Shown: positions 6,291 through 41,077 of the stretch, one piece after another
Layout of the letters: each line of letters begins with the position of its first letter
Numbering within the stretch: the stretch's first letter is position 1
Assembly (NCBI RefSeq): GCF_002813755.1
Contig: NZ_CP018061.1
Location: 1,726,001 to 1,790,000, forward strand
Direction of reading: 5' to 3'
Origin: Enterococcus mundtii
GTDB lineage: Bacteria > Bacillota > Bacilli > Lactobacillales > Enterococcaceae
Length of the DNA stretch: 64,000 bases
Translations under genes and position numbers: made by a program
The notes under the pieces: model-generated
What the model was told of the DNA's origin: nothing
What the model saw: the letters and a program-made list of their open reading frames with translations, nothing else
Databases searched by the model: none

Positions 6291-6445
6291 CAGATATCCA
6301 ATCGACTGGCTAGAGTTTTCTTCATAAATAAACGGTGTTCGAAAAGTTGACCTTCAACAATAAGCTAAAAAATCAAAAAATATAAGAAACTATTTTCTGA
6401 TTTTCTATCTTATTGCTCAGGTCAAAGTGCTTTTCTCACAACCTA

Positions 6446-6493
6446 AAATGTCCAGGAGGTCTAAAGGAGATTAAAAACCAACTGGACATTTTA
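6446..6493. terminator. Inverted repeat after the arc operon, likely terminator
   Basis: AAAATGTCCAG and CTGGACATTTT form a perfect 11-bp stem around a 26-base loop, 35 bases past the arcC stop. The A/T ends give a U-run on either strand. The loop is long, so the efficiency is uncertain. Confidence 0.55.
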
Positions 6494-6527
6494 TACACAT
6501 GGTCATGGTAAAACGATAAAAAGTTTC

Positions 6528-7481
6528 TTACGCTTCATCAGCAACAATGATCGTTCCTTCTTCTGAAGCTAATAGATTCTCAATATTTTCTAAGGAAGTA
6601 ATAATTGCTTTCCCAGTAGGACGAGCCTCAACAAAGGCAATCGCTGCTTCCACTTTTGGCAACATGCTTCCTGGAGCAAATTGGTTTTCAGCAATGTATT
6701 GTTTCATTTCTGAGACACCAACTGTTTCTAGTTTCTTTTGATCAGGTTTTTGATAATTCACATAGACATTATCGACACCCGTCAACACGATCAGTAGATC
6801 TGCTCCGATGATCTCTGCTAATTTTTCAGAAGCAAAATCTTTGTCGATCACGGCTTCTTTTCCTTCAAGACCTGTTGCAGTTTCCACTACTGGAATACCG
6901 CCACCACCTACAGAAATGGTGATCACGCCTTGTTCCACTAATGTTTGGATGACACGAGCTTCTTTGATTGAGATTGGTTTTGGAGAAGCAACGACCTTAC
7001 GCCAACCACGTCCTGCATCTTCTTTGAATGTTACGGAAGAGTCTGCGTTCATCTGATCGTTCGCTTCTTCTTCTGTATAGAAAGGTCCAACTGGTTTGCT
7101 TGGATTTTTGAACGATGGATCATTTTCATCAACGATGACTTGTGTCACTAAAGAAACGACATCTTTATCGATTCCTTTTTCCTTCAACACTTCGCCCATC
7201 GCATTTTGCAACCAATAGCCAATTGAACCTTCCGTCATCGCCACGCATGTATCTAATGGCATTGCCGGTGTTTTTTCTGAATCAGCCGCTTGTTGTTGGA
7301 TCAACAAATTTCCAACTTGAGGACCATTACCATGTGAGATGATCAATTCATCTCCTTGTTCAATAAATTTCACTAAGTATTTTGCTGTTTCCATCAATGC
7401 GTCTTGTTGTGCTTTTGCACTTGCATCTGTTGATAAAATCGCGTTTCCGCCTAATGCAACAACCACTTTTCTGTTTGCCAT
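6528..7481 (-). CDS. arcC: Carbamate kinase
   Basis: 317 residues, typical length for ArcC. It converts carbamoyl phosphate plus ADP to ATP, CO2 and ammonia, the energy-yielding last step of the arginine deiminase pathway. Family features: [10 protein letters not shown] at the N-terminus, [11 protein letters not shown] near 50, the [12 protein letters not shown] phosphate-binding stretch near 160, and the [11 protein letters not shown] region. The start has GGGAGA seven bases upstream. It is the last gene of arcA-arcB-arcC, separated from arcB by 113 bases containing a hairpin. The arginine/ornithine antiporter gene often found in this operon is not in the window. Confidence 0.96.
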
Positions 7482-38054: not shown

Positions 38055-38414
38055 ATAATCACCTGCCTACCTTCTGTTAAAATGGTAGCGGAAAACGGAG
38101 AAAATAGCAATTTAACTTTTTAGATTTTTGGATTTGTTCTGTCTAATTTTAGTTAGGACATCGATCTATCCCCATTTGATGTTAACAATCGTCAATCATT
38201 CATTCGTTAGATAACACTGAAAATCATTATAGTTTATGTGGAATCGATGAATAAAGTTTACTCTTTCTTGATGTATACGGCAGAAGAAAAATCATTCACA
38301 GACTAGATGAACACTAGTGATGCGAATGATTTTTTTGTTTATATTTGTTTTTCAATTTTCAACTTAATAATTCATGAATAGAGAATTTTTACCATCTATA
38401 ATTTCTATCTTTTA
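38055..38414. other. Intergenic region after the LXG locus
   Basis: AT-rich; holds the upstream region of the cyclo-ligase gene and a terminator for the immunity gene (38287-38334). No coding frame seen. Confidence 0.55.
38287..38334. terminator. Bidirectional-type terminator downstream of the immunity gene
   Basis: AAAAATCATTC and GAATGATTTTT outer stem with CACTAG-type inner pairing; T-runs on both sides. Confidence 0.7.
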
Positions 38415-38771
38415 TTATTCGTAGTTGATATAGATTTTACTTAAGTAATTGTGTTCTAAAAATAAAACAATTGCTTGAACTACTTCTTCCAAGCTATCTT
38501 TCATTGAGGTTTGATTGATTTTGTTGATATCAAAACATTTTAATTGTTCAATAATAAGGGATTTATCTTTGATTAACCACGGTGAATCATCATACCATCC
38601 CTCATGATGAAAGTATTCTTTCAAAATCCCCTTTTTTTCTAAATTACAATCTAATAAGTGATCTAAAATTGTATCAAAATACCCGTTCCAAATTATAAGT
38701 TTATTGCCATCAGCTACAAAAGAAAGCTCTGCTTCTCCTTCAAAACCTTCATAAAACTTATTGTCAATCAT
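38415..38771 (-). CDS. Candidate immunity protein for the LXG toxin
   Basis: 118 residues from the ATG at 38771, with AAGGAG eight bases before it. Acidic, cytoplasmic, no signal. Contains GFEGEAELSFVADGNKLIIWNG and a Trp-rich GWYDDSPWLI stretch. I do not recognise a named immunity family. It begins five bases after the toxin stop in the same direction, the normal place for an immunity gene, and is intact even though the toxin gene has an internal stop. Confidence 0.75.
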   Translation of the reverse strand: MIDNKFYEGFEGEAELSFVADGNKLIIWNGYFDTILDHLLDCNLEKKGILKEYFHHEGWYDDSPWLIKDKSLIIEQLKCFDINKINQTSMKDSLEEVVQAIVLFLEHNYLSKIYINYE

Positions 38772-38776
38772 ACCAT

Positions 38777-40306
38777 TCACTCCTTCCAATGACCTTTTTC
38801 CAAAATTATAATTTGTTCTGTAGTAGCATTTCCTTTTTTTCTTGCATTTATAGCATCATACCATTTATACGCTTCTACCCATTCATTATCACCAATTTTG
38901 AAAAAATTTTGGGGCTTGTTCCCTCCATTTCCAGGTAGTATTCTTTGGATAACCCATGTATTGCCCTGTTCTACAGGTGCTCCTGGAGTTCTTGTATGCC
39001 ACCTCACTTCATACTTAAATTCACCATCATTCCACTTATAAGTAATCTGTTCATAACCAGCATTCATTGTCTTGGCATTAATTTTTACGTTATCAGGAAT
39101 ATCTATAGGTGCTGTTTTCTTATATTGATTTGCAATTTTAAGTTTCTCTGCTTCAGTTAGCGTGGATAGCTTTGGTATATTTCCACCACCCACCTCCTCA
39201 ATCTTACCATTCTCCACCTGTTTCACACCAGTAGTCGTCAATACTTTGTATGAGGCGTAAGTAAAGCCTAATACCATCAAGGCTTGACCGAGTTCGGATT
39301 CATTGATCCATGTGTAGCCGTCTTTGACGTATTGCGAGGTAGAGACAATACTGCCTAAGAGTGGGTCTAGTTTTTCGCCGGTTTCGTAATTGACACCTTG
39401 ACGCCATGCTGCATTGACTTTCTCTTGGTAGGTATCGTACGTCATGAATTGGATCAGTTCAGGGTCTAAGTAGTGACCTACTTTCGTGACATATTGATAC
39501 AGCTCGGGATTCACGATGCCGTAGCCTGATTGCTTGTCTTCGATTTTCCAAAAGACACGTGGGTTGCCCTCGTTATCGTGAATAATGAGAGCATAGACGT
39601 TGTACTTTTCTAGTTCTTTGTTTTTAGTTGGATCGATGCCTTTTTTCTCGTTGTCTGCTTGTTGCCATTTGTCTTGGATCGTAGTTGTCCAGGACAAATC
39701 TTTTGGCATAGAGAATGTTTTCGTTTGGCTATTCCAAGCAGTTTTCGTTTGAGCAAGTCCTTGATTGACTGCTTGTTCGAGACTTTTGATTTCTGTAAAA
39801 AATTGCGCGGAGCTTTGGTTGTAAGCTAAGAGTTTTTGGAGTTTTTCTTCCAGTTTGTGTTTCAAATCATGATACATCGTGAGTAACAACGTATTCTAAC
39901 TGAGTTGAAAGCTTTGATGTTCTTCTGGCATATGAGGTGAAAGAAGCAATTGTCTTATTCCCTCGGCTTGAGTGATATACTGATTCATTTGGCGAATCTG
40001 TGCTTCTAATTCGGATTGTTTCAAGCTGATGGAATCAACTTGATTTATGTATTCCTGTGGAAATCGTTTTGCTGCTTTTTCGACCGCTTCGGAGAGTAAG
40101 ATTCCTCCTTGGACGAGTGGGTAAAGTACTTGGGAAAAATAGGCTTTCGCAGCGTCGTAGGTTTTCCCTTGGAGATTGGGCGTTTGTAAAGTGAATTGAG
40201 TGATGGCTTGTTGGAGATTTTGGTAATCAGTGACTTGTTTTTGGCAGAAGTGACTGGCGCTCGTGGCTTGGGCTAAGGAATCCGAAAGATACATATCGAT
40301 ACTCAT
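38777..40306 (-). pseudogene. LXG-domain type VIIb toxin gene with in-frame amber stop
   Basis: One 510-codon frame interrupted by TAG at 39896-39898. Before it lie 136 codons of an LXG domain (MSIDMYLSDSLAQA start, helical). After it the same frame continues N-T-LLLTMYHDLKHKLEEKLQKLL, the expected rest of the LXG helix, a linker, and a C-terminal toxin tip (about 130 residues) with RWHTRTPGAP, GNTWVIQR, ARKKGNATTEQ and a GHWK end, resembling polymorphic toxin type 30 from memory. LXG toxins leave through the EssC-type VIIb system. A C-to-T change in CAG would explain the stop. Alternatives: sequencing error, or separate expression of the distal part from TTG at 39889. Confidence 0.8.
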
Positions 40307-40650
40307 GTGTTTTGATCCTCCAACAAAATTTTTCTTTTCTCAAAGCTAATCTCATCAAGCTTTTGCGTGATTTTTTGTTGTTGGATCATTTCGTAATGTT
40401 GGCATTCATCAAAGCCATTCATCAATCGCCTACTTTGATGTGAAAACTCCGAGGTGAATGTTTCGATGGACGTAAAGGTATTCGATTTCTGGTAAGACAA
40501 TTGTAATCGAAATAAGAAGTTTCCGATTTCTTTAAAGTGATTCTGGTAATCTGAACGGCAGGCATCAAGTTGTTTCATTTTCTTTTCCTGTTCTTCTCTT
40601 TTTGCTTGCAGCAACGTTTCCTCGGTATCAAGATTTGTCCATTGATTCAT
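40303..40650 (-). CDS. LXG-associated helical helper, Lap2/DUF3958-like
   Basis: 115 residues, almost wholly helical and coiled-coil-like (TLLQAKREEQEKKMKQLDACR). Position between a WXG100-like protein and an LXG toxin matches Lap2 of streptococcal type VIIb loci, a targeting partner that binds the LXG domain. AAGGAGAG before the ATG; start overlaps the upstream stop (TAATG) and the end overlaps the toxin start (ATGA). Family name by context and size. Confidence 0.75.
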   Translation of the reverse strand: MNQWTNLDTEETLLQAKREEQEKKMKQLDACRSDYQNHFKEIGNFLFRLQLSYQKSNTFTSIETFTSEFSHQSRRLMNGFDECQHYEMIQQQKITQKLDEISFEKRKILLEDQNT

Positions 40651-40931
40651 TAGCGTCTCTCCTTAAAAAGATCTCGACTTAACTGAGTGTCTAGTGTAGA
40701 AAATCCTTGAGCAGCAGTTTGCAATTGATTAGCAGCGCCTGAGATGGCTGAGGCAATTTGATTGGCTGAGTTTTTAGCGGACGTTATGCTACTTTGAATG
40801 TCTTGATTGCCAATTAGCGTGGTGCGTGTGTCATTTTGAAGCGATGATGCTTGGTTTAAAGGGCTGGTTGCACTGGTGATTCTTGAAGTGGACTGTTGGG
40901 CTTGTTGAGAATTACTGCTGAATGTGGCCAT
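40650..40931 (-). CDS. WXG100-like LXG-associated helper, Lap1/DUF3130-like
   Basis: 93 residues from the ATG at 40931, with AAGGAGG five bases upstream; an upstream in-frame start would include the RBS. Small helical protein rich in Ser, Ala and Gln (ATFSSNSQQAQQ, NSANQIASAISGAANQLQ), like the TIGR04197/DUF3130 secretion partners of LXG toxins. First gene of the operon helper1-helper2-LXG-immunity. No esx/ess secretion machinery is in the window, so it must be elsewhere if functional. Confidence 0.8.
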   Translation of the reverse strand: MATFSSNSQQAQQSTSRITSATSPLNQASSLQNDTRTTLIGNQDIQSSITSAKNSANQIASAISGAANQLQTAAQGFSTLDTQLSRDLFKERR

Positions 40932-41077
40932 AACTTCCTCCTTTACCATAATGTTTAGATAGAACGTTTACATATTCATTATAACAATACATAACCTCTC
41001 GGTGGGTGAGAATTCTATTAGATAGGTCTTGTTACTTTATTTCTTATCTGGTTGTTGAAGGTATTTCTCAATGGACT

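What the first reader, a model, noticed from the sequence alone, without database searches (positions are those of the whole stretch)
38777..40306. LXG toxin gene stopped by a single in-frame amber codon
The LXG N-terminus and the rest of the toxin lie in the same frame separated only by TAG (39896-39898), with QLS before and NTLLLTMYHDL after. The helpers, the toxin tip and the immunity gene are intact. A fresh loss of function, phase-like suppression, or assembly error are all possible. If real, the strain would keep immunity without weapon.
Basis: seen in the sequence. Interest (0 to 1): 0.7.

Follow-up and report, generated by a model that had tools for sequence, protein, structure and literature searches.

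The report
Recently broken LXG toxin gene
A gene for a toxin that some bacteria inject into rival bacteria has been cut short by a single stop signal, apparently recently, while its export helpers, its toxic end and its antidote gene look intact; this is ordinary gene loss, in a gene patched together from sister copies.

Summary
On the minus strand an LXG toxin gene (40306 to 38777) is interrupted after codon 136 by TAG at 39898-39896, inside the LXG domain. The genome is an Enterococcus near E. mundtii. Four same-chassis relatives, two of them in this genome, have a sense codon there; 12 of 12 named chassis relatives (two of them the same genes again) read on to 305-524 aa. In 368 other chassis codons this copy has no private residue and two private silent changes, so the stop is young, or an undetected base error. 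I found no suppressor tRNA, restart site, tandem repeat or striking RNA structure. Most likely: a fresh nonsense mutation that silences one T7SSb antibacterial toxin. The strain is not weaponless: two sister genes with other tips are open, as are a secretion locus and two further LXG genes. Retained helpers may serve the sister at site B, which has none; the retained immunity gene is an orphan. Lone stops occur in 5 of 132 LXG matches of Enterococcaceae, at other positions. More interesting in passing: the gene is a patchwork, 621 bases nearly identical to sister A and 905 to sister B, indicating recombination among dispersed LXG loci.

The parts
40650..40949 (-). Lap1-type helper (DUF3130 / TIGR04197), open, with DxxTxxxGN and FxxxD motifs; the likelier start is the ATG at 40931, which has a Shine-Dalgarno-like site
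   Evidence: TIGR04197 E 3.7e-13, over its cut-off; motifs DTRTTLIGN and FSTLD and start; motifs as described in passages of PMC9600955
40303..40650 (-). Lap2-type helper (DUF3958), open
   Evidence: PF13125 25.6 bits, just under the cut-off of 26.3; 99.7% identical to the site A copy L021 and 83.3% to the G011 allele over 348 bases
39899..40306 (-). First 136 codons of the LXG toxin gene: LxG motif (LQG at residues 45-47) and about two thirds of the LXG domain
   Evidence: Shine-Dalgarno-like GGAGG upstream of the ATG
39896..39898 (-). In-frame TAG stop inside the LXG domain
   Evidence: a sense codon in 4 of 4 same-chassis genes
39182..39895 (-). Rest of the conserved chassis in the same frame after the stop (238 codons), no further lesion
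   Evidence: 91-95% identical at protein level to four open copies; in the 232 codons compared, no residue and two silent codons found in no other copy
38777..39181 (-). Toxin tip, open; part of a tip-plus-immunity module that sits on other chassis in other enterococci and Listeria; activity unknown (Ntox24 match below the cut-off)
38415..38771 (-). Immunity gene (118 aa), open, with its own Shine-Dalgarno-like site inside the end of the toxin frame
   Evidence: neutralisation not tested
40134..40754 (-). Tract shared with the site A copy (G000:C1:1554k, L021): 1 difference in 621 bases
39348..40252 (-). Tract shared with the site B copy (G000:C1:3203k, L022): 3 differences in 905 bases, one of them within the stop codon

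Best explanation
This is a type VIIb-secreted LXG antibacterial toxin gene that recently lost function through one nonsense mutation inside its LXG domain. Shown: the TAG, the one-frame relatives, the open helpers, tip and immunity gene, open sister genes and a secretion locus in the same genome. Inferred: translation stops after 136 residues, leaving an LXG stub that lacks the last third of the domain and the toxin, so nothing toxic is exported from this locus. Also inferred: the immunity gene is still made from its own ribosome site and now acts as an orphan immunity against producers of this tip, and Lap1/Lap2 may still serve the site B sister, which has almost the same LXG domain and no helper genes beside it. 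With its use gone the copy should decay, be overwritten or be lost.
For: Stop present. Sense codon at that place in 4 of 4 same-chassis genes: two in the same genome (L021, L022), one at the same chromosomal site in E. mundtii Pe161 (G011/L027), one in a second E. mundtii assembly (G007/L028). 12 of 12 named relatives, two of which are those of G011 and G007, read past it to 305-524 aa. In 136 + 232 chassis codons, the interrupted one left out, this copy has no residue found in no other copy and no codon change where the other four agree. After the stop the frame stays open for 372 codons. No UAG-reading tRNA among 62. The nearest restart codons, at 39889 and 39877, lack a Shine-Dalgarno-like site, whereas lap1, lap2, the LXG gene and the immunity gene have one (judged by eye). 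Open copies of the same tip and immunity pair on other chassis show that the pair is kept elsewhere. EssC, EssB, EsaA and a WXG100 protein are over their cut-offs; EssA is below its own.
Against: One genome per species is held, so neither allele frequency nor read support is known. A young stop and a base error look alike here. Two silent private changes lie after the stop and none before it, too few to tell relaxed selection. Expression was not tested.
Confidence: 0.8

Rival explanations
1. Base-calling or assembly error: the strain's gene is intact.
For: The stop is the only protein-changing difference private to this copy in the chassis codons compared; near-identical copies in one genome can confuse short-read mapping or polishing.
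Against: Neither sister copy in the genome carries the stop, so mix-up with them could not have introduced it. ORFs in the flanking region have the same lengths as in G011, for example 341, 69, 234, 183, 334 and 330 aa. Genome given as 99.99% complete in 2 contigs.
Confidence: 0.12
2. Silent reservoir: a muted toxin gene kept as a recombination donor or recipient for the other LXG loci.
For: Clear mosaic tracts show sequence exchange among sites A, B and C. Papers suggest that toxin fragments lacking their N-terminus may feed recombination (passages of PMC7790226, and of PMC10327511).
Against: The exchange is explained by homology alone; nothing shows that the muted state is selected. Lap1 helper matches bear stops about as often as LXG matches (4 of 148 against 5 of 132), so no toxin-specific silencing is visible.
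Confidence: 0.1
3. Split gene: the part after the stop is translated on its own by restart and acts as a second polypeptide.
For: TTG and ATG codons follow within 7 codons of the stop; the rest of the frame is open.
Against: No ribosome site in front of either; 0 of 12 named relatives is split there; the product would lack about two thirds of the LXG export domain.
Confidence: 0.03
4. Programmed read-through or amber recoding makes some full-length toxin.
For: The frame is open on both sides of a single TAG.
Against: No UAG-reading tRNA among 62; structure around and after the stop is unremarkable (z -1.5, 12 of 200 shuffles as stable); the codon is sense in the four same-chassis genes.
Confidence: 0.02

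Closest known systems
LXG toxins with Lap1 (DUF3130) and Lap2 (DUF3958) targeting factors, such as TelC and TelD of Streptococcus intermedius (PMC9600955, passages read)
   Same: Helpers Lap1 and Lap2, LXG toxin and immunity gene in one cluster; same helper families; DxxTxxxGN and FxxxD motifs in Lap1
   Different: Here the LXG gene itself is interrupted; an open sister (site B) has no helper genes beside it
Orphan immunity genes of T7SSb loci (passages of PMC10327511; PMC9484751)
   Same: An immunity gene without a working cognate toxin in the strain
   Different: The toxin gene is still there, interrupted by one codon, not absent
Orphan toxin modules of Enterococcus faecalis OG1RF (passages of PMC7790226)
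   Same: A toxin tip that cannot be delivered as it stands, with an adjacent small gene that could give immunity; full-length forms in other bacteria including Listeria
   Different: OG1RF orphans lack the N-terminal part; here the N-terminal part and helpers are present and one stop codon separates it from the tip
Recombination among T7SS immunity paralogues esaG and tipC (passages of PMC9484751)
   Same: Mosaic genes from recombination between conserved blocks of paralogues
   Different: Here it is a toxin chassis and lap2, between loci far apart on the chromosome, not tandem immunity genes

Membership tests
LXG toxin (PF04740) | N-terminal LXG domain | tested here: met
   N piece alone 23.6 bits, below the cut-off of 26.5; the genome search gives 30.2 bits with its neighbours in the frame. 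The domain is cut by the stop.
LXG toxin (PF04740) | Variable C-terminal toxin tip behind a conserved chassis | tested here: met
   Chassis after the stop 91-95% identical to four relatives, tips different
LXG toxin (PF04740) | Small helical targeting proteins upstream | tested here: met
   TIGR04197 over its cut-off; DUF3958 just under its own
LXG toxin (PF04740) | Immunity gene directly downstream | tested here: met
   118 aa gene conserved beside the same tip in other genomes; neutralisation not tested
LXG toxin (PF04740) | T7SSb machinery in the genome | tested here: met
   EssC, EssB, EsaA, WXG100 over cut-off; EssA 21.5 bits under its cut-off of 32.45; the EsaB-sized ORF had no match
LXG toxin (PF04740) | Full-length product exported by T7SSb and toxic | not testable with these tools
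   Interrupted reading frame; needs a proteome
Orphan immunity gene | No other toxin with the cognate tip in the genome | tested here: met
   The tip occurs once in the genome, behind the stop; one immunity match
Orphan toxin module | N-terminal delivery part missing | tested here: not met
   The delivery part precedes the stop and continues after it in frame
Stop-codon recoding / suppression | A tRNA that reads UAG | tested here: not met
   0 of 62 typed tRNA genes; 150 of 220 first-look candidates were scored
Phase-variable gene | Slippage-prone repeat or invertible segment at the switch | tested here: not met
   No tandem array in 39600-40200. One inverted pair of 16 bases at 94% (38461-38476 and 39944-39959) flanks the stop but runs from the immunity gene into the toxin gene, so inversion would break both; probably chance.

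The most novel reading that the evidence does not exclude
The three dispersed LXG loci behave as one recombining network: chassis and lap2 segments are copied between sites far apart on the chromosome, tips are exchanged as tip-plus-immunity modules, and helpers at sites A and C serve a helper-less toxin at site B. The interrupted copy is then a muted node of that network that still contributes helpers, immunity and sequence.
Probability: 0.3. Interest if true: 0.45.

Novelty: new member of a known kind. Interest (0 to 1): 0.24.

Why it matters
It shows one step of how bacterial weapon sets turn over: a delivered toxin is muted by one codon while its immunity and export helpers remain, and sisters with other tips carry on. 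The helper-less sister makes a natural test of whether Lap helpers act between distant loci. As an individual nonsense mutation it is ordinary.

Tried and rejected
Natural end of the protein at this point: rejected, 12 of 12 named chassis relatives read on. Suppressor tRNA: none among 62. Recoding structure: unremarkable. Restart: no ribosome site seen. Slippage repeat: none. LXG-specific silencing: LXG matches with a stop inside, 5 of 132 (a lower bound, since stops outside the matched stretch, like the window's own, are not counted, and in several genomes not all candidates were scored). Ten further matches have an open frame under 300 aa. Control FecCD in the same 28 genomes: no stop in the rows listed, of 177 matches by the genome rows (list cut; the Fisher p of 0.014 assumes none in the unlisted rows). 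Control Lap1 helpers, at the laxer limit of 1e-3: 4 of 148 (p 0.74 against LXG). The second control goes against a toxin-specific effect.

Mobile origin: a near search of plasmids with 38100-41000 gave one record, a chromosome-sized Listeria record, over 25% of the query. In phage records the N piece gave two Staphylococcus records at 45% and the tip two Listeria records at 80%, none annotated. The tip gave no relative in viral contigs (the N piece was not tried there). Tip function: no convincing PDB relative, weak Ntox24 and Ntox30 matches, single-sequence fold too poor to use (mean pLDDT 48), so no fold search was run.

Literature: searches on LXG with T7SS and Enterococcus, premature stop, pseudogene/orphan immunity, Enterococcus mundtii, gene conversion and intragenomic recombination showed no description of this locus in their listings. 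Only an open-licence library was searched; passages of seven papers were read, no whole text. PMC12445087, PMC10765036 and PMC8321402 added nothing used here.

Mended on checking: an earlier shuffle used a label string one label short; one search recomputed it from the sites.

Full report
What is there. On the minus strand of the window lie, in order, a Lap1-type helper (40949-40650), a Lap2-type helper (40650-40303), an LXG toxin gene (40306-38777) and an immunity gene (38771-38415). The toxin frame is interrupted after codon 136 by TAG at 39898-39896 and then stays open for 372 codons. The genome copy of this place is identical over 3198 bases; it is the same assembly. The piece before the stop matches LXG positions 21-102, the piece after it weakly 147-199, so the stop falls inside the LXG domain. 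The first genome search lists this place with an open frame of 520 aa and no stop inside: its matched stretch ends before the TAG, and the frame length it gives passes over it. The true stop-to-stop length before the TAG is 147 codons.

Is it an interruption? A lone stop with at least 100 open codons on each side occurs 9 times in this window, and the minus-strand cases near 22.6, 24.3, 27.4 and 37.5 kb are simply neighbouring genes by the ORF lists, so the frame alone proves little. Homology does. With the two pieces searched apart in 15 genomes of the genus, the own one included, 3 of 15 match each. Besides the window copy there are four same-chassis genes: two in the same genome (site A, C1:1554k, L021; site B, C1:3203k, L022), one in G011 and one in G007. 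All four have a sense codon at the interrupted place. G011 and G007 share contig lengths with E. mundtii Pe161 and E. mundtii CVM N55263. In G011 the open gene sits at the same chromosomal site as the window gene, with a different tip. Of 12 named relatives found in genome contigs, the genes of G011 and G007 among them, 12 read on, to 305-524 aa.

How old is it? In 136 codons before and 232 after the interrupted codon, the window copy has no residue found in no other copy, and two silent codons found in no other copy, both after the stop. The corresponding private codons are 18 for L021, 7 for L022, 42 for L027 and 52 for L028. Where the other four copies agree, the window copy never differs. 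It differs from L022 at 3 of 905 bases over 39348-40252, one of them within the stop codon. Most simply, then, the stop came after a recent exchange with site B, or it is a base error; the sequence alone cannot separate the two.

Patchwork. From 40754 to 40134 (part of lap1, lap2 and the start of the LXG gene) the window copy has 1 difference in 621 bases from site A, although lap2 of the same site in G011 is only 83% identical. From 40252 to 39348 it is nearly identical to site B. Lap1 as a whole is closest to the G011 allele (93.5% against 89.1% to site A). In the first 408 bases, 27 sites pair the window copy with A (10) or B (17), one further site pairing A with B being left out; the nine leading ones are all A and the later ones B except one (exact chance of nine leading A 2.1e-6). 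The direction of copying is not determined. The tip-plus-immunity part is a separate module: the same pair stands on other chassis in G076, G084 and a Listeria monocytogenes record.

Helpers and sisters. Two TIGR04197 genes were found in this genome, at sites A and C. At site B, in this genome and in G007, no lap1 or lap2 was found beside the LXG gene. The LXG domains of A and B are 99% identical to the window's before the stop, so the helpers here may serve the site B protein; that is inference. Two further LXG genes are open (470 and 428 codons stop to stop) and another match has only 184. The T7SSb locus at C1:2.92 Mb holds EssC, EssB, EsaA and a WXG100 protein over cut-off, EssA below it, and another LXG-like protein of 530 aa (the last named by eye).

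Alternatives. 62 tRNA genes were found and typed; none reads UAG (150 of 220 candidates scored). The restart codons nearest the stop lack a Shine-Dalgarno-like site, whereas the four genes of the cluster have one (by eye). The RNA around and after the stop folds slightly better than shuffles (12 of 200 as stable). No tandem repeat lies there; one 16-base inverted pair flanks the stop at 1467 bases between the arms and is probably chance. An assembly error remains open; ORFs of equal length in the flanks shared with G011 argue for a sound assembly there.

Base rate. In 103 genomes of the family, 28 have LXG matches at E up to 1e-5, 132 in all by the genome rows; 5 bear a stop inside the match, a lower bound. 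Their stops lie at five other places, and the frames stay open afterwards for about 320-470 codons. At E up to 1e-3, 3 of these 5 have a Lap1 match without a stop beside them, one has a broken one and one has none. Ten further LXG matches have an open frame under 300 aa. Lap1 matches bear stops in 4 of 148; FecCD matches in none of the rows listed, 177 matches in all (list cut). So LXG clusters decay more than a housekeeping-like transporter family, but the toxin gene is not singled out.

Tip. Six other tips align at 53-87% identity to the window tip. Of 7 tips, 4 match Ntox24 (best E 7e-5) and 3 Ntox30 (best E 2e-4); the window's own Ntox24 score, 18.4, is under the cut-off of 24. No convincing solved relative was found, and the model made without an alignment is not usable. 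Several relatives of the tip are themselves broken or stand in short frames. The activity is unknown.

Known work. In passages read, Lap1 (DUF3130) and Lap2 (DUF3958) bind the LXG domain and are needed for export (PMC9600955); orphan immunity genes and orphan toxins are known at T7SSb loci (PMC10327511; PMC9484751; PMC7790226); and immunity paralogues recombine (PMC9484751). The finding fits these. What I did not meet in the listings searched is recombination between dispersed LXG toxin loci within one genome, but the library is partial.

Verdict. A real in-frame stop in an otherwise well-kept LXG toxin gene, most likely a fresh nonsense mutation: ordinary in kind, with an instructive setting.

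Noticed in passing
window 39348-40754; L021, L022: The LXG gene and lap2 are a mosaic of tracts nearly identical to two other LXG loci of the same genome.
   Followed up: partly
L022 9257-10741; L028 14871-16421: At site B the LXG gene stands without lap1 or lap2 in two genomes, after a 760 aa ORF in this genome.
   Followed up: partly
L005 (G000:C1:3354834-3355133): Another LXG match in the same genome has only a 184-codon frame with stops on both sides in that frame; it looks like an older broken copy.
   Followed up: partly
window 38280-38342; L022, L027, L028: A stretch of 50-63 bases after the immunity gene recurs beside other LXG loci at 84-89% identity; by eye it contains a terminator-like hairpin. 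It could be a 3' homology block for module exchange.
   Followed up: no
L101 (G069:C1:859000-862800): A gene with a similar N-terminal start (MSIDMY) in another genus has a stop at about codon 13 with about 320 codons open after it, an independent parallel.
   Followed up: partly
L106 (NZ_CP030101.1): A 2.9 Mb Listeria record titled 'plasmid unnamed' is chromosome-sized and carries the same tip and immunity pair behind an open LXG-type gene on another chassis.
   Followed up: no
phage records OR846743.1, OR848102.1, OR850457.1, OR844998.1: Records filed as Listeria and Staphylococcus phages contain matches to the LXG tip or N-terminal part; whether these are phage genes or host DNA was not tested.
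   Followed up: no
L027 about 6432-7260 (G011): Downstream of the open LXG gene in G011 lie short ORFs and a repeated chassis-end fragment, apparently remnants of earlier tips.
   Followed up: no
window 38461-38476 and 39944-39959: A 16-base inverted pair (94% complementary) flanks the stop and the tip; probably chance.
   Followed up: no
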